DNA from: Cryomorphaceae bacterium 1068 | Lineage (GTDB): Bacteria; Bacteroidota; Bacteroidia; Flavobacteriales_D; Cryomorphaceae | DNA: 64,000 nt | Assembly (NCBI GenBank): GCA_027214385.1 | Contig: JAPVXR010000004.1 | Location: 1-64,000 of the forward strand | Direction: 5' to 3' | Shown: positions 1 to 53,968 of the stretch, piece by piece | Layout of the letters: every line of letters begins with the position of its first letter | Position numbering within the stretch: the stretch's first letter is position 1 | Notes under the pieces: generated by a model | The model's database searches: none | What the model was told of the DNA's origin: nothing | What the model saw: the letters and a program-made list of their open reading frames with translations, nothing else | Translations under genes and position numbers: made by a program

Positions 1-682
1 CATTTCCCGTGGCGATGAAAACCTCTTCTGTCTCTTCATCGAGGGTGTAATTCCACGCATTGTAGGTAGAGGTAAGGTCTCTGGCCATAGCAGCAAAACG
101 CCAATTGCCCTTGCGGTAAATAACACCCGCATCAAGGCCGAAACCCCAGCTGGTAGCAAAATCACCGATCATTCGGTGAACGACTTTTACATTGGCTCCG
201 AGTGAAAGCCCTGGCACTTTGAGTTTTTTGGCATAGGAAACCATAAAGCCATAATCTACCGCTGAGAAAGTGGTAATATTATCGTAATTCAGTGTTCCGT
301 CAGCATTGATCAGTTGAGTGGTGTTGGGGATATCATCTACCCCGAATCGAATCACCGAAAGGGCTATTACAGAAGTACTGTCAATGGTTTTCGCGATGGC
401 ACCATAATCATACTGCGCTATTCCTGCGAAGTACTCGGCGTGCATCGCAGCTATGTCCAAGTCGGCTTTGATGTCTGTTAATCCTGCAGGATTCCAGTAA
501 CCCGCCGTAACATCTCCCACTGAGGCTATACCCGCACCTGACATACCAAGCGATCGAGCTCCTACCCCGATATTTAAGAATTCATTACTGTATTTTCTAG
601 TCTGGGCATGAGAATCCAACTGCGTAAAAAGGCAGAATAAGAACAAACCAATAGCCAGAACAGTCCACTTGGGAGAAACCAT
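1..682 (-). CDS. PorV/PorQ-family outer-membrane protein, 3' end cut by window edge
   Basis: About 227 residues are visible from an ATG at 682; the C-terminus lies beyond the left edge. The protein starts with a hydrophobic signal peptide ending near SHAQ, followed by a FLNIGVGARSLGMSGAG block and a YWNPAGL motif. These are typical of the PorV/PorQ (UPF0164, FadL-like beta-barrel) family of Bacteroidota. Characterised members such as PorV act as outer-membrane partners of the type IX secretion system and shuttle cargo; many others are uncharacterised. Which paralogue this is cannot be decided from the fragment. It is divergent from pssA with about 64 bases between starts. The family call is firm, a T9SS role is inference supported by the many T9SS cargo genes in the window. 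Confidence 0.8.
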   Translation of the reverse strand, partial: MVSPKWTVLAIGLFLFCLFTQLDSHAQTRKYSNEFLNIGVGARSLGMSGAGIASVGDVTAGYWNPAGLTDIKADLDIAAMHAEYFAGIAQYDYGAIAKTIDSTSVIALSVIRFGVDDIPNTTQLINADGTLNYDNITTFSAVDYGFMVSYAKKLKVPGLSLGANVKVVHRMIGDFATSWGFGLDAGVIYRKGNWRFAAMARDLTSTYNAWNYTLDEETEEVFIATGN

Positions 683-746
683 AATTCGAAAAATAAACAT
701 CAATTCCGTGGTAAAACACGAAACAACTAAAAAAATTGCACGATCA

Positions 747-1481
747 ATGGTTAATTTTGGGACGATGTATTTGAAATCTCAAATTCCCAATTTACTTACG
801 CTGAGCAATTTATTGTCGGGCGTTTTGTCTTTGTTTTTTTGTTCTCAAAATCAACCCGAAATAGCCGCTTGGCTAATCCTTGCAGGAGCGGGTTTTGATT
901 TCTTTGATGGACTGGCTGCAAGGGCATTAGGCGTAAGTGGCGAATTGGGAAAGCAGTTGGACTCCTTGGCTGATATGGTCAGCTTTGGTGTAGCGCCTGT
1001 ATTTTTGGCACTTCAATTTAATGGAGTTTTCGGGAAAGAATTGCTGCTCAATTGGAAAGCTTTGGCTCTGTTCATTCCCATTTTAATGGGGGCATTTTCA
1101 GCTTATCGACTCGGGAAATTTAATATTGACACTCGACAAGCTACAGGTTTTATCGGCTTGCCCACTCCTGCCAATGCACTTTTTTGGGTGAGCATCGCCT
1201 TAGTCGGCACCGGAGGACTTATTGAATTGGAGCCGCTCAATTCAGGCCTGACCAACTTTAAAGAATCGACGGGATTGATTGCTTTTGCCTCAGTCCTATT
1301 AGGAATTTTAATGGTTTCAGAGATTCCACTACTGGCCTTGAAGTTTTCTGGAGAATCGGGCGGCAACAAATCCAAAATTGCCTTAATAGCAATAGGTCTC
1401 ACCTTATTTATCCTATTTGGGTTTTCATCCATCCCGATTGTGCTACTTTTGTATTTCATACTTTCTTTAATTACGAAATAA
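747..1481 (+). CDS. pssA: CDP-diacylglycerol-serine O-phosphatidyltransferase (phosphatidylserine synthase)
   Basis: This integral membrane enzyme joins CDP-diacylglycerol and serine to phosphatidylserine, the precursor of phosphatidylethanolamine. The CDP-alcohol phosphotransferase signature D-x2-DG-x2-AR-x8-G-x3-D-x3-D is complete, beginning at DFFDGLAAR and ending at DSLAD, and is flanked by several hydrophobic segments. The open frame continues upstream to a TTG at 669, but that would overlap the divergent PorV-like start. ATG 747 gives 244 residues and ATG 765 gives 238 with the family-typical start MYLKSQIPNLLTLSN, so 765 may be the true start. purS follows after 4 bases, and the two are probably cotranscribed. 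Confidence 0.9.
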   Translation: MVNFGTMYLKSQIPNLLTLSNLLSGVLSLFFCSQNQPEIAAWLILAGAGFDFFDGLAARALGVSGELGKQLDSLADMVSFGVAPVFLALQFNGVFGKELLLNWKALALFIPILMGAFSAYRLGKFNIDTRQATGFIGLPTPANALFWVSIALVGTGGLIELEPLNSGLTNFKESTGLIAFASVLLGILMVSEIPLLALKFSGESGGNKSKIALIAIGLTLFILFGFSSIPIVLLLYFILSLITK

Positions 1482-23010: not shown

Positions 23011-23091
23011 TTAATTGATTGTAAACTTACAATTGAGATGGGATTTCAACCTGTTTAATAATTGCGTGATGATGAGGTAATGATTAGTTCA

Positions 23092-23099
23092 TATATTTG
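23092..23099 (+). promoter_or_regulatory. Predicted -7 element of the first T9SS cargo gene
   Basis: TATATTTG, an exact TAnnTTTG match, lies 20 bases before the ATG at 23119. The resulting leader would be about 14 bases. This also argues against the longer upstream start at 23062, which would place the promoter inside the coding sequence. Confidence 0.45.
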
Positions 23100-23118
23100 G
23101 GGATCAAAAATTATACCT

Positions 23119-25074
23119 ATGAAAAAACAATTCTACCTATTACTCGCCGCTATCGGCATTTCGGGAACCGTTTTGGGTCAACAAGCCGTACCCATTCATG
23201 TCCCTGCAATGAAGAACAATTTTGAAAAGGCATCGAAAGTTGCCAAGTGGAATCAAAAAGACTTTGACAATCCGCTCTTCGAATCTGATTTCTCCGAAGC
23301 CCTTGGAGATGTTTGGACTGTTGACAATGAAAATGCCAGCCCGGCAGAAGATGACAATTGGGTAATTGGTACTGACATACCTAATGGTCCGTTTGCAATT
23401 GCGGGTATCAATTCAAGTACTGCAGACAACGGATTCGCTATGTTCGATTCGGATGGATACTGTGCTAATTATGCCTTCCCTTATCCTACACAAAACGCTT
23501 GGATTCAAACAGCAGAAGCAATTCCATTGCCCGCAGAGGATGTAAGTGTTCAATTTGAAACATATTACCGCGCATTTCAAGGTCAGTGCTTCTTCGAGTT
23601 TTCTGAGGATGGAAACATTTGGACTTCTATCGAGCTCTTCACTGACGTTGATGTAAATGACGCAACTGATAACTCAGAGTTATTCACATTTTTCGTAGAA
23701 GATTTATCGGGAGTAGATGATGCTTTCTTCAGATTCAGATATGTAGGTGCATGTGACTATGCATGGATGATCGATGATTTCAAAATCGCGGCTACACCTG
23801 AATTTGATATTAGAATGACTTCTGCTTGGTACGATGAGTACATCCTACTCGGAGGTGAAGACGATGATATCGTAGATTACTATGACAACCTTGAGTACAG
23901 TGAGTATCTTCAAGACAATGTACGTCCATTGACCTTCATTGCCGAAGTTGAAAACCTTGGAACCAGTGAGTTGACAGGAGTTACTCTTGAAGTTATTGTA
24001 AATACTCCAATGGGAGATCAAACTTTCACTTCAGACGCAATTACGGTTCAACCGTTTGAATTTGGTGTTATTGAAATTCCAAATGCTATGCTTGATGCAT
24101 TCGAAGATGGAGGAGAATTGGGAGATTACACTGTAAACTTTTCTGTTTCTGTAGCGGAGGATGAAGGCGATCTTTCAAACAATTCAGTTCCACCGAAAAG
24201 CTTTGTAGTTAACGATGTTTACATGGCAAATGACCGCGACCTATTGGTTGGACCATCTACCAGTATTGCCGATGACTGCACTTGGGGGAGTCAATTTGTA
24301 TATAAAGAGGCCACAACTGTGGATTACCTAGCTTTCGGATTAATCGAAACAGCAACGTTTGAATCAGCAGAAGGTGTGGTTACAATTATCAATACTACTC
24401 CGGGTGAGTTGCTCAACTTAAATATTCGTCAAGGATCAGTCTTAGAGGAAGAAGGTCCTGATAATGTTATGGAGTTACTTTTTGGAGATGATGAGATCGA
24501 GTACGTTATAGAAGAAGCTGATATTACAACAGGAGGAACATTGAATTGGATCATCGTTCCATTGCCTGAGCCAATAACCTTGGATCCTGACGTGATCTAT
24601 CAAGCTGAGGTTACTCTTCCAATAGTTGGTGAAGATTACTGCTTGATTGCCCAAGTTTCTCAACAAGAGGAACTGGCAGGTACTGTATTCACCCCGGATG
24701 ATCTTTCTTCGGGTCCTCAAGGATGGTTTACTCTAGGAACGGAAGCTCCCGCTCTTCGCATCGGTAAATTTGGCCCCAACAATACTCAAGAAACACCAAG
24801 CTTGAGCTTTTCTATGGGCCAGAACTTTCCTAATCCTGTAAGTAACGGAAGCACCAGAATAGCATGGGAATTGCAAGTTCCAGCAGAAAATATCACTTTC
24901 ACTATTAGCGATAACACGGGTAAAACTATCTACCAAAAAGACTTGGGAGATCGTCCCGCAGGTGTTCAGGAAGATATCGTTTTAGACGATTTGAAACTTG
25001 CTGCTGGAGTATACCAGTACGGACTTAAAGTTGGAAACGAAAGAATGGTTCGTAAAATGGTTATTACCAAGTAA
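23119..25074 (+). CDS. T9SS type A sorting-domain protein (secreted, paralogue 1)
   Basis: This is a 651-residue secreted protein. It has a clear signal peptide MKKQFYLLLAAIGISGTVLG, then a jelly-roll-like domain (residues about 45-230) with a CFFEFSEDGNIWTSI strand and the YAWMIDDFKI ending typical of MAM/choice-of-anchor-J domains. An Ig-like region with alternating strands follows (about 270-370), then a third beta domain. The C-terminal sorting domain of about 85 residues starts at MGQNFPNPVSNGST and ends VRKMVITK. The protein is strongly acidic. It shares domain order with the next two genes, and the block VIYQAEVTLP...SSGPQGWF recurs, but identity to them is low. The role is unknown; adhesin or matrix protein is possible. 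The in-frame start at 23062 is rejected because the signal peptide begins at 23119. Confidence 0.8.
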   Translation: MKKQFYLLLAAIGISGTVLGQQAVPIHVPAMKNNFEKASKVAKWNQKDFDNPLFESDFSEALGDVWTVDNENASPAEDDNWVIGTDIPNGPFAIAGINSSTADNGFAMFDSDGYCANYAFPYPTQNAWIQTAEAIPLPAEDVSVQFETYYRAFQGQCFFEFSEDGNIWTSIELFTDVDVNDATDNSELFTFFVEDLSGVDDAFFRFRYVGACDYAWMIDDFKIAATPEFDIRMTSAWYDEYILLGGEDDDIVDYYDNLEYSEYLQDNVRPLTFIAEVENLGTSELTGVTLEVIVNTPMGDQTFTSDAITVQPFEFGVIEIPNAMLDAFEDGGELGDYTVNFSVSVAEDEGDLSNNSVPPKSFVVNDVYMANDRDLLVGPSTSIADDCTWGSQFVYKEATTVDYLAFGLIETATFESAEGVVTIINTTPGELLNLNIRQGSVLEEEGPDNVMELLFGDDEIEYVIEEADITTGGTLNWIIVPLPEPITLDPDVIYQAEVTLPIVGEDYCLIAQVSQQEELAGTVFTPDDLSSGPQGWFTLGTEAPALRIGKFGPNNTQETPSLSFSMGQNFPNPVSNGSTRIAWELQVPAENITFTISDNTGKTIYQKDLGDRPAGVQEDIVLDDLKLAAGVYQYGLKVGNERMVRKMVITK

Positions 25075-25102
25075 GGTTACTACCGTTCTATGAATAAGAT
25101 AG

Positions 25103-25133
25103 AAAGGGTTGCCATTTCAGGCGACCCTTTTTT
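25103..25133 (+). terminator. Rho-independent terminator after the first T9SS cargo gene
   Basis: An 11-pair stem (25103-25113 with 25120-25130, one T-G wobble) and a 6-base loop are followed by a run of T, 29 bases after the stop at 25074. This separates the first cargo gene from the second. Confidence 0.8.
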
Positions 25134-25282
25134 ATTTGATACTTTAAAGAAAAATGGAAGAATCTTGGAATTCCATTTGCAAATTTGTCGGCCAAATGAT
25201 ACATCAATATGCGGTGAAGCATAGGATATTTTAACTATTTTTACATTCTAACTTTTTAAAGTTTAACTAACACCAAATTCTT

Positions 25283-27331
25283 ATGAAATTAAAAATCTAC
25301 TTTTTAGGGGCTCTAGCCTCTGTATTTGGTCTTCAGTCAATGGCTCAAAGCAGCCAAGAAGCTAAAAAGACCGTTCATTCCTACATCCAGGCTCCCGAGT
25401 TCCAACAGAACACGAAAGTCGATTATTCTAAAGCGGGAGCTAAAGAAACTATATTCTGCAGTGAATTCGATGATCCGGATGCCTGGACTCTTATCAATGA
25501 AGGCGAGCAAGGAACGTGGGGTGTTGTACTTGAAGAAGATGCTGATGTACTTGACTTTATGGGTGCCATGGCTTCTGCCACTGCCGATAACGGTTTTGGT
25601 CAATTCAACGGAATCTCTTTCCTACTTGATGGAGATGTCGCGCTTCAAAATTCAATACTTGAATTGAACGAGCCTGTTGACTGTAGCGCTCTATCTGATG
25701 TTGCGGTTACCTTCAACCAGCGCGCCAGAGCATTTAACTACGACGAAAACTACCTGGAAGTATCTACTAATGGTGGGACTTCTTGGGTTCCTTTCCTAGT
25801 AAACGATGGTTTGGTAACGAACGCACCTGCGATACAAGGAGAAATCACTCTCGATATCACAAGCGTTGCTGCTGGAGAATCTGATGTGAGACTTCGTTTC
25901 CGATGGGTTTCTGACCCTCTTTCTGTGAATCCTGACCTTACTCCTGATGAGATTAACAGCTTCGGTTCAGGTTACGGATGGATGGTTGATGACTTATGTG
26001 TTTCAACACTTCCTGAAAACGAGTTGATCATCGGTGAAACTTACTACGATGACTTCTTCGAAACTTTCTTCGAGCTTGACGGAAGCTACTTCTACGCAAG
26101 CGCAGAAACTACTGACTTGGATCAAGTAACTTCTTTCGAATACCACACACAGCCTGACTACTCTACTAGAGAGTTCAACTTTGCATGCGGTGTTACAAAT
26201 GGCGGTACTGCCGAGCAGACAGGTGTTAGCCTTGTAGTTACTTTTACTGACCCTGACGGAACATCAACAGAGCTAACAAGTGATCCTATCACCCTTGCTC
26301 CCGGAGTTACGGACACTATCCGCTTCTACGGTCAAATCCCTACGAATTGGGAAGTAGATGGCCAAGGAGGAGCACTTCCAAATGGTCTTTATGAAATCGA
26401 CTTTGAAGTGGTACAAGACCAAGACGATGAGCTTCCCGGTAATAACGTAGGTGTTTCTCGTTTTACCAGAATCACAGATGACTCAAGCGCTGATGGAGCG
26501 ATCATTCAACATGAAAACTCGTTGACTCAACTTGGTGCTGACGGTCAGGACATCATTTCAGGTACACGCTACTCTTTCAGCCCCGGCGATGAAGACAGAG
26601 CTATCACTACAATTCGATTTGCGATTAATGATGAATCTGCTGATGGTGTGGGTGAGCAAGTATTCTTGAATGTAAGAACAGGTTCTGTTCTTGAAGAAGA
26701 GAATGACGATAACCCAATGAACCTATTCTTCAGCTACAATGAAGATGATGAAGACGTTGTAACATACGAAGTAGATGAGGATGATTTGTCAACCACTTCT
26801 ACTCCTAATTGGATTGAAGTTACGCTTCCAACTCCTGTATTTATTGAGCCTGGACTCATTTACCAAGCAGAGATGCGTCTTCCACTTTTCGGAGAGGAAC
26901 TAGTCTTTACAGGTCTTACTTCTACACGTAAAGCAAGCTCATCTGTAATTTACGATTTCGATGATGTATCTACAGGTCCTCAGGGATGGTTCTTCTTCGG
27001 AGGTTCAGTTTACAACTTAGCTTTCGGTACTGACCTTGTAACAAACGTTTCTGACATTAGCTACGAAAGTGGAATTAAGTTGACTCAAAACTACCCGAAC
27101 CCGGTAGTGAACAATACAATGATCCAATTCCAACTTGATGTAGCTAGCGCAGTTACTTTTGAAGTATTCGACATTACAGGTAAACTTGTATACAGCGAAG
27201 ACTTAGGTAACGTGCCTGCTTTGACCAACCAAGTGGTTGACTTCAACCGTGCCGGTTTGGCTGCAGGAACTTACACTTACGGTGTTGCTACTGAAAATGA
27301 AAGATTAACAAGAAAAATGATTATCCAATAA
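25283..27331 (+). CDS. T9SS type A sorting-domain protein (secreted, paralogue 2)
   Basis: The 682-residue protein has a signal peptide (MKLKIYFLGALASVFGLQSMAQ split after GLQ), an N-terminal jelly-roll-like domain ending GSGYGWMVDDLCV near residue 240, a CARDB/Ig-like domain around 300-395 (FACGVTNGGTAEQTGVSL), and a third beta domain. The C-terminal T9SS sorting domain starts at LTQNYPNPVVNNT and ends TRKMIIQ. It is strongly acidic. The next gene encodes a protein with the same architecture at roughly three quarters identity by eye, and their 3' flanks are also alike, so the two arose by tandem duplication. I see no catalytic motif. A structural, adhesive or glycan-binding role is inference. 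Confidence 0.82.
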   Translation: MKLKIYFLGALASVFGLQSMAQSSQEAKKTVHSYIQAPEFQQNTKVDYSKAGAKETIFCSEFDDPDAWTLINEGEQGTWGVVLEEDADVLDFMGAMASATADNGFGQFNGISFLLDGDVALQNSILELNEPVDCSALSDVAVTFNQRARAFNYDENYLEVSTNGGTSWVPFLVNDGLVTNAPAIQGEITLDITSVAAGESDVRLRFRWVSDPLSVNPDLTPDEINSFGSGYGWMVDDLCVSTLPENELIIGETYYDDFFETFFELDGSYFYASAETTDLDQVTSFEYHTQPDYSTREFNFACGVTNGGTAEQTGVSLVVTFTDPDGTSTELTSDPITLAPGVTDTIRFYGQIPTNWEVDGQGGALPNGLYEIDFEVVQDQDDELPGNNVGVSRFTRITDDSSADGAIIQHENSLTQLGADGQDIISGTRYSFSPGDEDRAITTIRFAINDESADGVGEQVFLNVRTGSVLEEENDDNPMNLFFSYNEDDEDVVTYEVDEDDLSTTSTPNWIEVTLPTPVFIEPGLIYQAEMRLPLFGEELVFTGLTSTRKASSSVIYDFDDVSTGPQGWFFFGGSVYNLAFGTDLVTNVSDISYESGIKLTQNYPNPVVNNTMIQFQLDVASAVTFEVFDITGKLVYSEDLGNVPALTNQVVDFNRAGLAAGTYTYGVATENERLTRKMIIQ

Positions 27332-27352
27332 TCAACTGAAACTTGTTTCAAT

Positions 27353-27386
27353 AAAAAGCCCCGCTGCTCTGCAGCGGGGCTTTTTT
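27353..27386 (+). terminator. Strong Rho-independent terminator after paralogue 2
   Basis: A perfect stem pairs 27356-27367 with 27371-27382 around a 3-base loop, extended by flanking A and T tracts and ending in six T. The A-tract on the other side means it could act in both directions. Confidence 0.9.
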
Positions 27387-27627
27387 GTGTTTTAAATCCA
27401 ACAGAATTGCTTCACTTGATAGGACCTAGATAGCACTGTTTGAGGTAGACAGTAACCTACAATGTCTTCAGTAGGGCTAGCCCATGCATCATGTTAAATA
27501 TTCGGAAACTGAAATTGTAACTTCCTGTTTTTGTGAGCTATTAATATTTGAACTTAGTCAAATGGAAGTGACAATCCCTTATTTTGAGTAGCTTACCCAA
27601 ATAATCACGCTATTAAAACAAATCCTC
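27387..27627. other. Intergenic stretch between the duplicated T9SS genes
   Basis: These 241 bases are AT-rich and hold no open frame, tRNA or strong hairpin that I can see. The upstream part of the next gene's leader has TTATTTTG near 27578-27590, one base short of a TAnnTTTG promoter box. It does not resemble the region upstream of the sister gene. Confidence 0.4.
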
Positions 27628-29670
27628 ATGAAATTAACAACCTACCTTCTAGGAGCATTGGTCTCTGTATTCAGCCTGCAATCTATAGCTCAGAATAGTC
27701 AAGAAGCAAAATTGAACCTTCAAGGCTACATTCAAGCTCCCGAAATCAAACAAGATGTAAAGATTGATTACGCTACGTCAGGTGCGAAAAATACTGTGTT
27801 CTCAAATGAATTTGATGTCTCAGAAGAGTGGATTCTGACAAATGAAGGAGAACAAGGCACTTGGGCAATAGTGACGGAAACCAGTCCGAACGTAGCAGAT
27901 TATATGGGTGCTATGCAATCTGCATCAGCAGAAAACGGCTTTGGTGAATTTGACGGTATCTCTTTCCTATTAGACGCGGATGTTGCACCCCAGAACTCCA
28001 TTCTTGAATACAACGGTTCTATTGACTGCAGCTCACTAAGCGATGTTGCGGTAACCTTCAACCAAAGAGCCAGAGCTTTTAATTATGACAAACAGTTTCT
28101 CGAAATTTCTACAAATTCAGGCACTTCATGGATACCATTCGAATTGAACACTGAATTGGCATTTAACGCTCCTGCGGTACAAGGCGAAATCACTATTGAT
28201 ATTACCAGTGTTGCCGCGGGAGAAGAAGATGTGAGAATCCGATTTCGTTGGTTTTCAGATGCGCTTAGCGAGAATCCTGACCTGACCCCTGCACAGGTCA
28301 ATAGCTTCGGCTCAGGCTATGGATGGATGATTGATGACTTGATCGTGTCTTCCCTTCCTGAAAATGAATTAATAATAGGAGAAACCTTCTATGATGATCA
28401 CTTCGAAACCTTTTTTCAAGTCGGTGACGAATATTTTGTCAGCGAGGAGTATACAGATTTGCTTCAAGTGTCTTCCTTCGAATACCACACACAGCCCGAT
28501 TTCTCCACCAGACCTTTCAACTTTGCTTGTGGTGTGACCAACGGCGGTACTGTTGAACAAACAGGAGTTAGCCTTGTGATCACTTTTACCGACCCAAATG
28601 ATGAAACGTGGACAGATACGAGCGACCCGATTACACTTGCTCCGGGCGTTACGGATACTATTCGCTTTTACGGTCAAATTCCTTCGAATTGGTCGATAAA
28701 TGGAAATGGTGATCTTCCTAATGGTCTTTATACAATCGACTATGAAGTGATTCAAGATCAAGATGACGAACTACCCGGAAACAATGTGGGCGTTTCATTA
28801 TTTACAAGAATTTCGGATGAAGAATCAGAAAGCGGTTCTTTTATTCAACACGAAAATTCATTAACATTTCTAGCCAATGATGGTCAAGACATCATTGCCG
28901 GAACCCGGTATACCTTTAGTACAGATGAGACGAATAAAGTAATTACCTCTATTAGATTTGCCTTAAACGATGAATCTGAAGATGGTATTGGTGAACAACT
29001 TTTCCTAAATGTGAGAACGGGAGGCGTATTGGATGAAGAAAATGCCGAAAACGAAATGAATCTTTTCTTCAGCTACAACGAGGATGACCCGGATGTCGTG
29101 ATCTATGAAGTTGAAGAAGAAGATTTATCTGCTACCTCTACGCCCGTTTGGATTGAAGTTGTGCTTCCAACACCAATACTTATTGAGCCCGGGCTGATAT
29201 ACCAAGCGGAGCTGCGTCTTCCGCTTTTCGGAGAAGAATTGGTTTTCGTTGGTCTTACATCAACACGAAAAGTTTCTTCGTCTGTCCTTTACGATTTCGA
29301 TAATGTGAGTACAGGTCCTCAAGGTTGGTTCTTTTTAGGAGGGCAAGTTTATAACTTGGCTTTTGGTACAGATCAACCTTTAAACGTGCCTGAAATCAGC
29401 TACGAAAGCGGAATAAAGCTGACCCAAAATTATCCTAATCCGGTTGTAGACCATACAAGAATTCAATTCCAACTGGATGAAGCCAGTGCGGTTACTTTTG
29501 AAGTATTTGACATCACGGGTAAGCTTGTTTACAGTAAAGACTTTGGTGACGTACCCGCATTGACTAATCAAGTGGTTGACTTCAACCGTGCCGATTTAGC
29601 TGCAGGAACCTACACTTACGGCGTAATTACTGAAACCGAAAGACTCACAAGAAAAATGATTATCCAATAA
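27628..29670 (+). CDS. T9SS type A sorting-domain protein (secreted, paralogue 3, tandem duplicate)
   Basis: This 680-residue secreted protein has the same order as its upstream neighbour: signal peptide ending SIAQ, N-terminal jelly-roll-like domain ending GSGYGWMIDDLIV, CARDB-like domain, third beta domain with YQAELRLPLFGEELVF, and a C-terminal T9SS sorting domain starting LTQNYPNPVVDHT and ending TRKMIIQ. Small insertions or deletions distinguish the copies, for example one fewer residue at NGNGDLPNG. Many differences are synonymous while the C-terminal 90 residues stay nearly the same, so both copies appear to be maintained as functional genes. Function is unknown. It faces the PNGase F-like gene, with a terminator between. 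Confidence 0.82.
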   Translation: MKLTTYLLGALVSVFSLQSIAQNSQEAKLNLQGYIQAPEIKQDVKIDYATSGAKNTVFSNEFDVSEEWILTNEGEQGTWAIVTETSPNVADYMGAMQSASAENGFGEFDGISFLLDADVAPQNSILEYNGSIDCSSLSDVAVTFNQRARAFNYDKQFLEISTNSGTSWIPFELNTELAFNAPAVQGEITIDITSVAAGEEDVRIRFRWFSDALSENPDLTPAQVNSFGSGYGWMIDDLIVSSLPENELIIGETFYDDHFETFFQVGDEYFVSEEYTDLLQVSSFEYHTQPDFSTRPFNFACGVTNGGTVEQTGVSLVITFTDPNDETWTDTSDPITLAPGVTDTIRFYGQIPSNWSINGNGDLPNGLYTIDYEVIQDQDDELPGNNVGVSLFTRISDEESESGSFIQHENSLTFLANDGQDIIAGTRYTFSTDETNKVITSIRFALNDESEDGIGEQLFLNVRTGGVLDEENAENEMNLFFSYNEDDPDVVIYEVEEEDLSATSTPVWIEVVLPTPILIEPGLIYQAELRLPLFGEELVFVGLTSTRKVSSSVLYDFDNVSTGPQGWFFLGGQVYNLAFGTDQPLNVPEISYESGIKLTQNYPNPVVDHTRIQFQLDEASAVTFEVFDITGKLVYSKDFGDVPALTNQVVDFNRADLAAGTYTYGVITETERLTRKMIIQ

Positions 29671-29755: not shown

Positions 29756-32700
29756 TTACTCTTTTACCACTCTTTGGGTAGCTATTCTTTCGCCATCAGA
29801 AGCTTGAACAACATAGACTCCCGATTCCAGACTTCCCATTGACAAAGTACTCACTGTCGCATTTAAACCTGTAATGACTCTTTGCGAAAGCACCAATTGG
29901 CCCAATGAGTTGTAAATACTAACCAAAACATTGGTATCAAAGCCTTCCAGAGATAAACTCAGCTGATCTTGGGTGGGATTTGGAAATACTTCGAATTGGT
30001 GTTTCCCCGTTACCTCATCAAAGGTGAGTGGATAGTCAATGGTAAATTCATAATTTATGGCATCGCCAAAATCGCCTTCGAAGTATTTGAATGTAGGTCC
30101 TCCTACTTCTTTAAGTCTCACACTTCCGTTTCCATCATTGTTGGCCCAGAAGCTCACACCGTCGTCATCCGAGTCATTTACATGAAAAGTATAGCACCCA
30201 ACGGGAAGCTGCAGCGTATCGCGGTAAAGGGTATTTGATGACATATTGTCGCGTTCAAATATCACACTACCATTATCATCCCTCAATTGATAATCATTCT
30301 CACTTGCTTGACTATTCGTGCTGAATATGATCAGGAAATGATTTGGAACAACTTCGGGAATCCCAAAAGAGGACTCATACGAATTGTTGTACTCGTATTC
30401 ATCAGCCTCGCCATTGGGCAATGAAATGGATGCGTGAAACACGTTATTTTCAGGAGTTACTGACTCCCACAGCGATTGAGGAGTAGGTAAAACGACTGCT
30501 TCAGACTCAAGAAATTCAAGTGAACCGGTCCATACATATGTTTCAGGTGTAGGCGCATTATTTACCCAATAGGTAATCGTGACAGACGTTAAGGTTTCAC
30601 TCCCCGTATTGCGAATAACTACTTCGGGAGAGTGACAGATCGTACCAAAGCGATCAAACTCAAAACGGTCTGAAGGCTTCCTTACCTCCACAAGAGAGGC
30701 ATCCAAACCAAAATTATTGTCGCCATATGTGACCAATTGATGGTTCACAATATATCTGGAATCTCCTGTTGCGCTATTCATTCCGTAATCGATATTTACC
30801 GTCTCGCCGGGAGTTACCATTGATGTAATATCAAATTCCTGAACGTCGGTAGCCATTCCCGGACACCACCCTGCACGGTCGTATATCCAGGTGCCTCCTT
30901 GCGGATAAAGTGGATTGGCAGCACACTCTTTCCAAACTTGCCATGAAAACTCATTGCTACCTCCGTCAATGTCGACGTAATGAGTACGAGGAATAAATTC
31001 TCCCTGCTGACCGTGTCCTGTTATAGCGGATCGTATTTTGAATTGAAATCCTTCAGGATTCGCCATCACATCTCTTGGTGGAAAAAAAGTATCATCAGAA
31101 ATCACGGAGTAATTCCGTTGATCGACTTTCCAAATCTGCTGAATATCAATGACGTCTCTCGGAGGCGTCCCAACTACAAACAGAAACTGAATATCCATCT
31201 CTTCCTGCCATTGTCCTCCCCTCTCCAGAGTCATACGTTTCGATCCGTTTAGAATTGGCACAAAATCGGTCAGATCAAAAGTCCATGTTTTTCCCACGGG
31301 CGTCATATCCAAACCTATACCGTATGGTGTAACAAAGGACATAATCTCATATTTCATCGGAAACTTTCGGAAATAGAACAATTCACCAATTTCTATGGAG
31401 TTTTCAGCTGGCACGTTTACCACTCCCACCTGATCGCCTGATTCATCAATTATCGGCATGTCTCCTGCCTCGTAGTAGGTGTTCACACTAATCTCTTCCA
31501 AGTCGGTTCCATTGACACCATATTCTGTAACGGTATTCACCGCATTTACGGTAGAGTCCAAAACCACTGTCTCCTCGACAGAAGTAACATACTCTCCCTG
31601 AATAACCTTGATATTAGGCCGCTCACTAACCGCGTCAAAGTTTTTCATAATGTCTTGCCCCTCATTCTGTCGCCAGAGAGGCGCCGCGATCAACTCTCCT
31701 TCATGAGCTCCAGTCATATCCTCTGCTATCACTCCCTCACCTTGATCAAAAGTATAATAGGCCATCAGGTTGGCATAGCTAGGGTGAGACTCGGATACCG
31801 AAGAATACATGTAAGCTGCTATTTCACTTTCCGAAAGCTCTGTATTCCAAACGCGGAATTCATCAACTTTTCCGAAGTAAGTATTGGTCCAAGTAATCGA
31901 TCGTCCAATTCTCAATTCTTGGAGGTCAATGAGCTTTGTTTTTCCATTCCCTGAATGCCATAAGGAGCCGTTTAGGTAGATCTTCATACTTCCTGTGGTG
32001 GCGTTTTTAGTAAAGGCCCAGTGGTTCCATTGACCTGCAAAATCTTCCACGGCAGCCTCCTTATCAATTCGGTCGTACCCGGCACCGTCATTACCACAAT
32101 CCCAATAAACTCGGCTATTCCCCCATGGAAGGTGAGCATTAACCTGACGATTATTGTCAAGATCCCTACCCTCAAATAGAGTAGTATTGGAAGGCATTAC
32201 GTCTTCATTTCCATATACCCAGCAAGAAATCGTGATCTGATCTGTAACTTCGGGAAAACTATTTTCCAGCTCGACATATGATTCACCATTGAAATCGAGA
32301 TAGAAATCGTCTGATGCAGATGTCAAACCATGGTTTTCGATGGTTTCAGACAATACTTCTGACCCCGATCCATCTGCATCCTCATAAGTGAATTGAACAA
32401 TTAAGTTGCTGGTACCATCCCACTCAAATTCTGTACTTAGATTAAACTGGTACTCTCCAACAGCATCAAAAGTGGTATTGAGGTAATAGACGTTAGTAAA
32501 GCCGTCTATTTCAGGAGAAGCAGGGTCAAGCTCAGTAGCATCGGTCTCTTTCATCGCAATTCTCAGATTTGCAATTTCATCACCTAATGTTCCGATATCT
32601 ATGGTTAAGCCGGTAATAGCATCTGCAGCCAGTCCACCACTTGTCAACTCATCGGCCGTGTAGAGATATTGAGTCTTTGCATCTCCCAAGCTGTTGTTCA

Positions 32701-33184
32701 GCGGAGTTACATTTGGAATCACTCCGTTACCAATCTCTGAAACCAATTCTGAGAGCACTTCGGTATAAGTGACCTCCTGCTGAGTGGATTGAGAATAGGA
32801 ATAGGTAGGTGATGTAGTATAATTGTAAGTTGTGCCACTGAAGCCTGTAACAATAAAATCAGGGTGAGTAGTCCCTAGTGAGTCCGTTCGGGTAGAGTCG
32901 GTTAAATACGTGTTGCAACTATAATCCCATTCTCCACACGCTACGTTATTTCCTCCTGTCGTGTTTACGGCTGCATCCTTGCAGCGCATATTATAGCGCA
33001 TCAATACCTTCTCGAAAGTAAGCCCGGAAAAATCCGGGAAGACCACCATAGTATCTCGAGTAGTACTGGCATAATTCAGCGTTTGGACTACTATAGTATC
33101 ACCTGTTTCTTGAGCTGTAGCTACTTTAGAAAAGATTTGAAAAACCAAAAAAGCAACCAAGCACTTTGACGCGATCTTTAACAT
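29756..33184 (-). CDS. Secreted peptide-N-glycosidase F-like protein with LamG-like insert and T9SS sorting domain
   Basis: The 1142-residue protein has a signal peptide ending ATAQE, then a PNGase F N-terminal-type region with ACGEWDYSC, in which D87 aligns with the catalytic aspartate D60 of Elizabethkingia PNGase F. A LamG/concanavalin-like domain (about 290-480, FNGESYVELEN...KVDEFRVWNTELSESEI) is inserted. The PNGase F C-terminal domain follows with ITGHGQQGEF, where E729 matches catalytic E206, and the highly characteristic YDRAGWCPGMA. Then comes a region around 920-1040 and a C-terminal sorting domain (FEVFPNPTQDQLSL...RVVKE). Known PNGase F releases N-glycans from glycoproteins; the LamG insert suggests glycan targeting. 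The substrate is inferred, not shown. Confidence 0.85.
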   Translation of the reverse strand: MLKIASKCLVAFLVFQIFSKVATAQETGDTIVVQTLNYASTTRDTMVVFPDFSGLTFEKVLMRYNMRCKDAAVNTTGGNNVACGEWDYSCNTYLTDSTRTDSLGTTHPDFIVTGFSGTTYNYTTSPTYSYSQSTQQEVTYTEVLSELVSEIGNGVIPNVTPLNNSLGDAKTQYLYTADELTSGGLAADAITGLTIDIGTLGDEIANLRIAMKETDATELDPASPEIDGFTNVYYLNTTFDAVGEYQFNLSTEFEWDGTSNLIVQFTYEDADGSGSEVLSETIENHGLTSASDDFYLDFNGESYVELENSFPEVTDQITISCWVYGNEDVMPSNTTLFEGRDLDNNRQVNAHLPWGNSRVYWDCGNDGAGYDRIDKEAAVEDFAGQWNHWAFTKNATTGSMKIYLNGSLWHSGNGKTKLIDLQELRIGRSITWTNTYFGKVDEFRVWNTELSESEIAAYMYSSVSESHPSYANLMAYYTFDQGEGVIAEDMTGAHEGELIAAPLWRQNEGQDIMKNFDAVSERPNIKVIQGEYVTSVEETVVLDSTVNAVNTVTEYGVNGTDLEEISVNTYYEAGDMPIIDESGDQVGVVNVPAENSIEIGELFYFRKFPMKYEIMSFVTPYGIGLDMTPVGKTWTFDLTDFVPILNGSKRMTLERGGQWQEEMDIQFLFVVGTPPRDVIDIQQIWKVDQRNYSVISDDTFFPPRDVMANPEGFQFKIRSAITGHGQQGEFIPRTHYVDIDGGSNEFSWQVWKECAANPLYPQGGTWIYDRAGWCPGMATDVQEFDITSMVTPGETVNIDYGMNSATGDSRYIVNHQLVTYGDNNFGLDASLVEVRKPSDRFEFDRFGTICHSPEVVIRNTGSETLTSVTITYWVNNAPTPETYVWTGSLEFLESEAVVLPTPQSLWESVTPENNVFHASISLPNGEADEYEYNNSYESSFGIPEVVPNHFLIIFSTNSQASENDYQLRDDNGSVIFERDNMSSNTLYRDTLQLPVGCYTFHVNDSDDDGVSFWANNDGNGSVRLKEVGGPTFKYFEGDFGDAINYEFTIDYPLTFDEVTGKHQFEVFPNPTQDQLSLSLEGFDTNVLVSIYNSLGQLVLSQRVITGLNATVSTLSMGSLESGVYVVQASDGERIATQRVVKE

Positions 33185-52052: not shown

Positions 52053-53399
52053 TTGGAACCTCCCGATATAGAGCCCCTCAGTATTATTCTGGCACTTTTT
52101 AATCCTATCTCATTTGAAGTTTGGATAGCGATAGCCGTAACACTCTTTCTTATCGCTTGCTCTGCCTTGATTTCAGGATCTGAAGTTGCCTACTTCTCCC
52201 TTGGACCAAATGAAAAGAATGAGTTGGAGACTTCTAAATCCAACGTTTCTGATCGAATTCTGGCATTACTCGACAGACCCCAGAGACTTCTGGCCACCAT
52301 CTTGATCACCAACAATTTCGTCAACATCGGAATTGTAATCGTCTCAACATTTATCGTTTCCGAGTCCTTCAACTTTGAGGATTATGAAGCATGGGTTGCC
52401 ATCCTCATTCAAGTAGGTGGCATCACTTTTCTATTACTACTATTCGGTGAAGTTATCCCCAAAGTTTACGCTACGGCGAATGCACTACCCCTTTGCAAAT
52501 TCATGTCTTTGCCATTGGAGATTCTCGGAAAAATCTTCTATCCGCTGAGCACATTACTCATCACAAGTACCAATGTGATTAACAAAAGAGTGAAGAAAAG
52601 AGGAACTGACTACTCTGTAGATGAACTTGAGGCTGCCTTGGAATTGACCAAAGACGAAGAGACCACTCCTGATGAAGAAAAAATACTGAGAGGCATTGTA
52701 CGTTTTGGTGGAACGGATGTAAAGCAAATTATGACACCCAGAACGGAAGTAGTTTCTTTCGAACAAAGAACCCTGTTCCCTGAATTGCTCGCAGAGTTGC
52801 TTCAGCAAGGTTTTTCCAGAGTTCCAATCTATGAAGAATCACTGGATCAAGTAAAAGGAATTCTCTACTTGAAGGATCTACTGCCTCATGCTGATGCTGA
52901 AAACCTGCAATGGCTTCCGCTCGTTCGCCCTCCCTATTTTGTTCCAGAGAACAAGAAGCTCGATGACCTTATGAAGGAGTTTCAAGAGAAGAAAGTTCAT
53001 ATGGCGATCGTTGTAGACGAGTATGGCGGCACTTCAGGAATTGTGACCCTTGAAGATATTCTCGAAGAGATTGTCGGTGACATTACGGATGAATTCGACG
53101 ACGAGAAGATTTTCTATTCCAAACTAGACGATCAGAATTACGTTTTCGAAGGCAAGACTCCTCTAGTCGATCTTTACAAAATCTTAGACCTCGATGGCGA
53201 GAACTGGGAAGATGCAAAGGGAGAGTCTGACACTTTAGCAGGATTCATTTTGGAACAAGCGGGAAAAATCCCACTGAAGAATGAAAAAGTCAAATTTGAA
53301 AATTACATCTTGACTGTAGAAGCGGCAGACAAGAGAAAGATTAAGCGTGTAAAACTTACGGTAACAGAGACGACCGAAGAAAATACAGAGAAGTCTTGA
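52053..53399 (+). CDS. gldE: Gliding motility-associated protein GldE (CNNM/CBS hemolysin-like)
   Basis: This 448-residue membrane protein has an N-terminal CNNM/DUF21 domain with three to four helices (residues about 20-185, SALISGSEVAYFSL), two CBS modules from about residue 215 (MTPRTEVVSFEQ and KKVHMAIVVDEYGGTSGIVTLEDILEEIVG in two blocks), and a C-terminal CorC/HlyC domain. GldE partially substitutes for GldD in F. johnsoniae gliding; the gene is usually next to gldD. The start is TTG 52053: a stop lies in frame at 52038 and the first in-frame ATG is about 150 codons on, so no ATG option exists. It overlaps gldD by 4 bases. Confidence 0.88.
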   Translation: MEPPDIEPLSIILALFNPISFEVWIAIAVTLFLIACSALISGSEVAYFSLGPNEKNELETSKSNVSDRILALLDRPQRLLATILITNNFVNIGIVIVSTFIVSESFNFEDYEAWVAILIQVGGITFLLLLFGEVIPKVYATANALPLCKFMSLPLEILGKIFYPLSTLLITSTNVINKRVKKRGTDYSVDELEAALELTKDEETTPDEEKILRGIVRFGGTDVKQIMTPRTEVVSFEQRTLFPELLAELLQQGFSRVPIYEESLDQVKGILYLKDLLPHADAENLQWLPLVRPPYFVPENKKLDDLMKEFQEKKVHMAIVVDEYGGTSGIVTLEDILEEIVGDITDEFDDEKIFYSKLDDQNYVFEGKTPLVDLYKILDLDGENWEDAKGESDTLAGFILEQAGKIPLKNEKVKFENYILTVEAADKRKIKRVKLTVTETTEENTEKS

Positions 53400-53968
53400 A
53401 GAAATTTACCCTCCTTTTTTTTGTTCTCATCTTGATGTCTTGTCGCGAAGATACGCCCACTCCAAAACCGGTAGGCTATTTTCGAATTGACCTTCCTGAA
53501 GTTAGTTACGATACCAAAGAACCTGAATACTGTCCTTTTAAATTCCCCATATCGAAGTATGGAAGAGTGGAGTACACTACCCCCCCTTCCGATCCTGTTT
53601 GTTGGTTCAATTTGAGTTATCCTGAGTTTGACGCTAAAGTATATTTCACCTACAAGGAAGTGGATGGAAACCTCAGGGAATTGATCGAAGAATCACGCGC
53701 CCTTACTTACGAACACCAAATAAAAGCAAATAGAATAAATGAGAAGGCGGTTTCTGATACTTCTCGTTCTGTATTTGGCTTGGTGTATGAACTAGGTGGA
53801 GCAGTGGCATCTCCCGTTCAACTTTACCTCACTGATAGCACGAGTCATTTTTTAAGAGGCTCGCTCTATTTTAACGCCCGTCCCAACCCTGATTCTATTG
53901 GCCCAGTGCTGAACTTTATTGAAGGAGACATTGACCAAATGGTGCAGGAGCTGGAGTGGAAGAATTAA
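53396..53968 (+). CDS. gldD: Gliding motility lipoprotein GldD
   Basis: GldD is an outer-membrane or periplasmic lipoprotein required for gliding motility and T9SS function in flavobacteria. The signal peptide KKFTLLFFVLILMSC puts the lipidated cysteine at residue 16. The mature part shows the family pattern KPVGYFRIDLPEVSYD, CPFKFPISKYG and WFNLSYPEFDAKVYFTYK. The start codon is TTG at 53396, inside the gldE stop (TTGA), so translation is coupled; the next methionine is within the lipobox and cannot be the start. The 190-residue length is normal. It ends on a TTAA shared with ctaA (53965-53968). Confidence 0.9.
   Translation: MKKFTLLFFVLILMSCREDTPTPKPVGYFRIDLPEVSYDTKEPEYCPFKFPISKYGRVEYTTPPSDPVCWFNLSYPEFDAKVYFTYKEVDGNLRELIEESRALTYEHQIKANRINEKAVSDTSRSVFGLVYELGGAVASPVQLYLTDSTSHFLRGSLYFNARPNPDSIGPVLNFIEGDIDQMVQELEWKN

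What the first reader, a model, noticed from the sequence alone, without database searches (positions are those of the whole stretch)
29756..33184. PNGase F-like enzyme with an inserted LamG domain, exported by T9SS
Seen: counterparts of PNGase F catalytic D60 (D87 in GEWD) and E206 (E729 in GQQGEF) and the DRAGWCPGMA signature are kept, but the protein is about three times the size of the classic enzyme, with a LamG-like domain between the two catalytic halves and a C-terminal sorting domain. Known: PNGase F removes N-glycans from glycoproteins. Inference: a marine glycoprotein or algal glycan target recognised by the LamG insert; alternatively the bacterium's own glycosylated surface proteins, some encoded next door.
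Basis: partly seen in the sequence, partly recalled or inferred. Interest (0 to 1): 0.5.

Follow-up and report, generated by a model that had tools for sequence, protein, structure and literature searches.

The report
Secreted PNGase F relative with spliced-in arm
This gene encodes a large secreted relative of PNGase F, the enzyme that cuts N-linked sugar trees off proteins; its catalytic domain is interrupted by about 500 extra residues that include a lectin-like LamG domain, and the same layout recurs in many related bacteria, but I found no published test of what it does.

Summary
The 1142-aa minus-strand ORF carries PNGase F catalytic halves (D87 and E729 align with PNGase F D60 and E206), a LamG domain and a T9SS sorting tail. 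A predicted structure superposes on PNGase F across model residues 28-824 (Z 24.0, 270 residues aligned, chain of 311), so the insert loops out of a folded double jelly-roll. Active-site loops are low-confidence and the D87-E729 distance could not be measured.

Refinement: the interruption is about 510 aa (modules J, LamG, R) and sits in one hairpin of the N-terminal jelly-roll, not between the two jelly-rolls. Relatives show no insert, an R-like insert only, or J-LamG-R at that place. E729 is kept in 60 of 60 LamG-type and 21 of 21 insert-less sequences; D87 in all that cover it. PNGase F's third acid, E118, is not conserved; E661 is a candidate stand-in in the main LamG clade and its sister group.

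PF09113 occurs in 113 of 150 genomes of its order, 94 with a frame of at least 1000 aa. No glycan gene cluster was seen around it. Best reading: a secreted PNGase F-type amidase scavenging foreign N-glycoproteins, with a binding arm of unknown ligand. New variant of a known kind.

The parts
29756..33184 (-). whole gene, 1142 aa, PNGase F-like protein with J-LamG-R insert and T9SS tail
33113..33184 (-). signal-peptide-like N-terminus (aa 1-24), judged by eye, no predictor run
   Evidence: sequence; predicted helix 2-20
32885..33103 (-). catalytic N-terminal piece N1 (aa 28-100), start of the first jelly-roll
32924..32926 (-). D87, counterpart of PNGase F D60 (motif CGEWD)
   Evidence: alignment; D in 53 of 53 LamG-type rows that cover it (7 of 60 do not) and 21 of 21 insert-less rows
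32315..32767 (-). module J (aa 140-290), beta-sandwich without a Pfam match
   Evidence: isolated model with only weak matches
31667..32311 (-). LamG / pentraxin-like domain (aa 292-506)
   Evidence: Pfam; fold match to PAPP-A LG domain Z 22.9 and pentraxins about Z 20
31370..31666 (-). module R (aa 507-605); an R-like stretch stands alone in some relatives without J-LamG
30695..31369 (-). catalytic remainder Cat (aa 606-830): rest of jelly-roll 1 and jelly-roll 2 (N-glycanase_C)
30998..31000 (-). E729, counterpart of PNGase F E206
   Evidence: alignment; E in 60 of 60 LamG-type and 21 of 21 insert-less rows
30854..30880 (-). DRAGWCPGM signature (aa 769-777)
   Evidence: R770, W773, C774, P775, G776 in 60 of 60 and 21 of 21 rows
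30365..30682 (-). Ig-like region (aa 835-940; label is mine, no Pfam match)
30020..30352 (-). second beta domain (aa 945-1055; my label PPC, no Pfam match)
29759..29989 (-). T9SS type A C-terminal sorting domain

Best explanation
It is a secreted PNGase F-type amidase. Shown by sequence and predicted fold: a double jelly-roll catalytic domain homologous to PNGase F, interrupted in one hairpin of its first jelly-roll by a J-LamG-R arm and followed by two beta domains and a T9SS sorting tail. Inferred: Sec exports it, T9SS places it on or outside the cell, and D87 and E729 hydrolyse the GlcNAc-Asn amide of N-glycoproteins from eukaryotic matter, releasing the glycan and exposing the protein to the cell's peptidases. 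The LamG arm would hold the glycoprotein or the particle it sits on. What fills the role of E118 is unknown; E661 is the candidate.
For: Homology to PNGase F: E 4.8e-14 single sequence, 4.6e-21 with the family profile. Fold: 1pgs Z 24.0, rmsd 3.0, 270 residues, model 28..824 on chain 4..306; also zebrafish Ngly2 Z 22.4, PNGF-II Z 21.8, plant/insect-active PNGase 7zgn Z 21.4. Both catalytic residues, the WCPG signature and C754/C774 are conserved across 81 relatives, D87 in the 74 that cover it. In Ngly2, alanine mutants of the equivalents of D60 and E206 lost all activity (PMC12753239, passages). Catalytic pieces are better conserved (mean identity to the query 0.59) than J 0.31, LamG 0.39, R 0.31 and CTD 0.26. 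Sorting-tail match; 150 such tails matched in the genome, of 246 candidates, 150 being the number scored. Relatives with no insert, R-like only and J-LamG-R share the insertion place. The genome has one GH92 and one GH20, families that I take to trim N-glycans (GH92: PMC9522356 passages; GH20: recalled).
Against: No activity data. E118 is not conserved: position 654 is E in 13 and D in 3 of the 32 rows of A1, and E in 13 and D in 3 of 60 in the wider alignment. Active-site blocks have pLDDT 57-66 and the residue distance was not measured (no coordinates). No CAZyme among the window ORFs scanned; one SusD_3 match in the genome (other SusD families not sought). No GH18 match. Co-occurrence with GH92 across 150 genomes (odds ratio 5.3; 4.0 for frames of at least 1000 aa) is not specific: the GH16 control gives 3.2, and GH92 against GH16 gives 7.2. 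Location is not certain for the family: two characterised Bacteroides PNGases are predicted periplasmic (PMC9522356).
Confidence: 0.68

Rival explanations
1. Same fold and catalytic pair, but the substrate is not a eukaryotic N-glycan: another Asn-linked or amide-linked glycan, for example on archaeal or bacterial surface proteins.
For: The E118 position is lost, and the active-site region differs from insert-less forms: H735 is kept in 60 of 60 LamG-type against 8 of 21 insert-less rows, E661 in 58 of 60 against 4 of 21; the four are L070, L077, L081 and L082, all in the sister group of five, and the two LamG rows without E661 are the off-clade L128 and L134, so E661 marks a clade, not the insert. 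PF09113 is frequent in the order, 113 of 150 genomes, more like a general trait than an accessory glycan locus.
Against: R770, W773 and the WCPG signature are kept. PNGF-II also lacks E118 (glycine there) and acts on N-glycans (PMC9522356, passages).
Confidence: 0.17
2. A surface adhesin or lectin that kept the PNGase fold but lost catalysis.
For: Large binding-type arm; no conserved E118; T9SS sorting tail.
Against: D87 and E729 are not substituted in any row that covers them, 74 of 74 and 81 of 81, and the catalytic pieces are the most conserved parts.
Confidence: 0.08
3. Maturation enzyme for the bacterium's own glycosylated surface proteins, some encoded next door.
For: Three T9SS-tailed proteins of about 680 aa lie next to it.
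Against: Of 12 window neighbours compared with 99 loci, the block recurs only in L022, the closest relative; elsewhere only single housekeeping genes matched (fumarase in L121 and L122, release factor in L005 and L127, weak ABC and aminotransferase hits in L004, L021, L090). N-linked glycans on Bacteroidota proteins are not known to me (recalled).
Confidence: 0.07

Closest known systems
PNGase F, type I (Elizabethkingia meningoseptica; 1pgs, 1pnf, 3pms)
   Same: double jelly-roll, D60 and E206 counterparts, DRAGWCPGMA, PNGase F cysteines that I count as 231 and 252 opposite C754 and C774
   Different: no 510-aa insert, no T9SS tail domains; E118 not conserved here; Trp191 is His here
PNGF-II, type II (4r4x, 4r4z) and Bacteroides massiliensis PNGase (7zgn)
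   Same: catalytic fold (Z 21.4-21.8); TGHG..EF motif; no Glu at the E118 place
   Different: they carry an N-terminal bowl-like domain outside the catalytic domain (PMC9522356); no insert of this kind is mentioned in the passages I saw
Zebrafish Ngly2 acid PNGase (9lwg)
   Same: catalytic fold Z 22.4 and ITGHG..GEF motif
   Different: its extra domains are a protease-associated and a thioredoxin-like domain, with the PNGase domain at the C terminus (PMC12753239)
LamG domain of PAPP-A and pentraxins
   Same: fold of the middle insert module, Z about 20-23
   Different: low sequence identity (10-19%); ligand cannot be transferred

Membership tests
PNGase F superfamily (N-glycanase_N/_C) | N-glycanase_C domain | tested here: met
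   45.3 bits, cut-off 25
PNGase F superfamily (N-glycanase_N/_C) | N-glycanase_N domain | tested here: inconclusive
   no profile match, no control rang; the fold alignment spans PNGase F residues 4-306
PNGase F superfamily (N-glycanase_N/_C) | catalytic pair D60 and E206 | tested here: met
   D87 and E729; kept in all covered rows
PNGase F superfamily (N-glycanase_N/_C) | both catalytic residues in one cleft | tested here: inconclusive
   superposition on PNGase F Z 24.0 but loops of pLDDT 57-66 and no distance measured
PNGase F superfamily (N-glycanase_N/_C) | release of N-glycans | not testable with these tools
   no biochemistry possible
Type I PNGase F | Glu (or Asp) at position 118 | tested here: inconclusive
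   not a family-wide feature: E in 13, D in 3 of 32 rows at position 654; the window protein itself has E654 in an ungapped reading, while the profile alignment leaves E118 unpaired
Type II PNGase (PNGF-II) | N-terminal bowl-like domain | tested here: inconclusive
   the catalytic N1 piece starts at aa 28, leaving no room before it; the domain was not sought elsewhere
T9SS type A cargo | C-terminal sorting domain | tested here: met
   57.6 bits, cut-off 23
T9SS type A cargo | secretion dependent on T9SS | not testable with these tools
   needs mutants; a GldD gene lies in the window
LamG (Laminin_G_3) | profile match and concanavalin-like fold | tested here: met
   71.1 bits, cut-off 27.6; Z 22.9 to PAPP-A LG

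The most novel reading that the evidence does not exclude
A large, uncharacterised branch of the PNGase F superfamily in which a stepwise insertion (R first, then J and LamG) turned a small amidase into a substrate-targeted surface enzyme with a rearranged third catalytic acid (E661, already present in the R-only sister group), acting on native glycoproteins or on an Asn-linked glycan that known PNGases do not cut, as a near-core trait of an order of Bacteroidota.
Probability: 0.22. Interest if true: 0.62.

Novelty: new variant of a known kind. Interest (0 to 1): 0.4.

Why it matters
If active, it would be a source of PNGases with built-in targeting, possibly able to act on folded glycoproteins or on algal N-glycans, and it would mean that cutting N-glycans outside the cell is a widespread trait in an order of Bacteroidota, here without a visible glycan gene cluster. 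It also shows a catalytic domain tolerating an insertion of about 500 residues at one hairpin.

Tried and rejected
Acid pH optimum by analogy with Ngly2: H724 matches the Ngly2 histidine H546 proposed for acid activity, but the same TGHG motif is in PNGF-II and in 3ks7/4qhb, so it is no specific sign; dropped.

Functional link to GH92 by co-occurrence: 96 genomes with both, 17 PF09113 only, 19 GH92 only, 18 neither, of 150 (odds ratio 5.3, p 8e-5, relatedness not corrected); the GH16 control is also associated (87/26/19/18, odds ratio 3.2, p 0.006) and GH92-GH16 more strongly (7.2). Not usable as evidence.

E661 as a mark of the LamG insert: dropped. The four insert-less rows with E661 all lie in the sister group of the main LamG clade, and the two LamG rows without it lie off that clade.

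Conserved operon: none found; the window's neighbours recur as a block only in L022.

Fold of J alone: pLDDT 78.1, partial sandwich; no match at E 0.001 or better, listed rows E 0.004-0.09; left undetermined. Fold and profile hits of the LamG region to clostridial neurotoxin binding domains reflect a common concanavalin-like fold and were not followed.

Type II-like tolerance of core alpha-1,3-fucose from glycines near the E118 site: alignment too uncertain, and G656 is G in only 31 of 60 rows; kept as a lead only.

One or two gains of the insert: 58 of 60 LamG-type rows group together (SH-aLRT 94, not starred, quick tree); L128 and L134 (family code f62) fall elsewhere; at least two changes on the tree. 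Single origin not shown. R profile matches are weak: three of the five sister rows and L068 match at E 0.01, but only one insert-less protein still does in the larger set.

Papers: eight counted searches listed no paper on a LamG-inserted or T9SS-tailed PNGase F that I recognised from title and start of abstract; 20 of 29 were listed. Passages were opened of four papers only. In PMC8812541 PNGase F appears as a double jelly-roll fold and LamG in connection with DUF2961; PMC12025955, which holds all three terms, was not opened. The library lacks most subscription papers.

Full report
What is there. The minus-strand ORF 29756-33184 encodes 1142 aa. Pfam finds Laminin_G_3, N-glycanase_C and the T9SS sorting tail, all above their cut-offs, and NCBIfam confirms the tail. 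phmmer against the PDB puts PNGase F first (E 4.8e-14), with E729 opposite E206 and, in a separate weak piece, D87 opposite D60; a profile of the 32-row alignment A1 strengthens the main match to E 4.6e-21. The search found one PF09113 gene in the genome. A1 holds the query and 31 ORFs from 30 loci; other hits were left out as truncated, split (L034) or short (L038, L039).

Does the split domain still fold as PNGase F? AlphaFold2 on A1 gave mean pLDDT 84.5 and pTM 0.52. VIA-align places model 28..824 on PNGase F 4..306 (1pgs, Z 24.0, rmsd 3.0, 270 residues, chain of 311), with other PNGases close behind: Ngly2 22.4, PNGF-II 21.8, 3ks7 21.6, 7zgn 21.4. So the two pieces either side of the insert form one PNGase-like double jelly-roll in the model.

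What is inserted and where. PNGase F has a short hairpin between the D60 strand and the next strand (YEIGRFITPY). Here about 510 aa stand in that place, before YEIMSFVTPY at aa 612. Domain profiles built from A1 were run on the 64 ORFs with a catalytic match in 67 loci of the phylum survey. They show three states at this place: no insert (for example L076, 637 aa), about 100 aa with an R match (L077, L081, L082; also L068), and J-LamG-R or J-LamG (1080-1373 aa), in 20 of the 64 (sequences). R was not significant in every long form, nor in all intermediate ones such as L064, where I judge the likeness by eye; in the larger set only one insert-less protein keeps an R match at E 0.01. On a quick tree of the catalytic remainder (97 rows), 58 of 60 LamG-type rows group together (94), beside five rows of which three match R; L128 and L134 fall elsewhere. 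I infer that R came first and J-LamG later, at least once.

Conservation. In 60 LamG-type and 21 insert-less tailed relatives, E729, H724, C754, R770, W773, C774, P775 and G776 are kept in all 81; D87 in 53 of 53 LamG-type rows that reach it (7 of 60 do not) and in 21 of 21. H735 is kept in 60 of 60 against 8 of 21. E661 is kept in 58 of 60 against 4 of 21; the exceptions on the LamG side are L128 and L134, and the four others are L070, L077, L081 and L082, in the sister group of five. E661 thus marks that clade and predates the LamG insert if the tree is right. PNGase F E118 has no conserved counterpart. Sixteen untailed insert-less rows of the tree, mostly classical forms, were left out, and survey ORFs with a catalytic match weaker than E 1e-6 or shorter than 150 aa entered neither.

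How common. PF09113 occurs in 61 of 395 Bacteroidota genomes; the LamG form in 20 of them by fetched loci plus the window's own; three further second copies were not fetched. In the window's order PF09113 occurs in 113 of 150 genomes, 94 of these with an open frame of at least 1000 aa. Length is only a proxy there: of the 30 loci returned, chosen by best score and so rich in classical forms, 8 showed LamG before the catalytic remainder. In GTDB species genomes 38 loci, of 50 stretches with a pattern match, encode relatives of the query, most of them over nearly its whole length.

Surroundings. Neighbours include MlaF/MlaE-type transporter genes, three T9SS-tailed proteins of about 680 aa, glycine cleavage P-protein, fumarase and a release factor (40 of the 60 ORFs of at least 120 aa listed were scanned). 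No glycosidase or sulfatase matched. Elsewhere in the genome: one GH92, one GH20, no GH18, one SusD_3 match, five GH16, and 150 T9SS tails among the 150 candidates scored of 246. This fits a secreting, protein-degrading lifestyle better than one built on polysaccharide loci, but that is inference. The GH92 co-occurrence is not specific, as a GH16 control is also associated.

Function. Homology, fold and the unbroken conservation of the two acids argue for PNGase-type amide hydrolysis. In Ngly2, alanine mutants of the same two residues were inactive (PMC12753239, abstract and passages). Enzymes that release N-glycans are described as commonly outside the cell for nutrient gain in bacteria, with PNGase specificity set by the N-glycan core (PMC10154615, passages); against this, two Bacteroides PNGases are predicted periplasmic (PMC9522356, passages). 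Type II enzymes lack E118 yet are active, so its loss does not rule out activity. What LamG binds is unknown; pentraxin and PAPP-A likeness shows a fold only.

Novelty. Eight counted searches showed me no paper on this architecture; I saw listings and passages of four papers. I recall, without a call, that RefSeq labels such proteins 'peptide-N-glycosidase F-related', so the homology itself is probably already in automatic annotation. Verdict: new variant of a known kind.

Noticed in passing
window 23062-29670 (+): Three consecutive ORFs of 670-682 aa with T9SS-tail matches (the first below Pfam's cut-off); two L022 ORFs match all three, so they look like paralogues. Function unknown.
   Followed up: partly
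window 53396-53968 (+): Gliding motility lipoprotein GldD gene, so part of the gliding and secretion apparatus lies in the same window.
   Followed up: no
L012 7814-11365 and 11670-15170: Two tandem copies of the LamG-type PNGase F relative in one Flavobacteriales genome.
   Followed up: no
L034 7949-11455: The homologous gene is split over three ORF pieces: a decayed gene or assembly errors.
   Followed up: no
L128, L134: Two LamG-type proteins of one family code (f62) fall outside the main LamG clade and have W in place of E661; possibly a second, independent insertion.
   Followed up: partly
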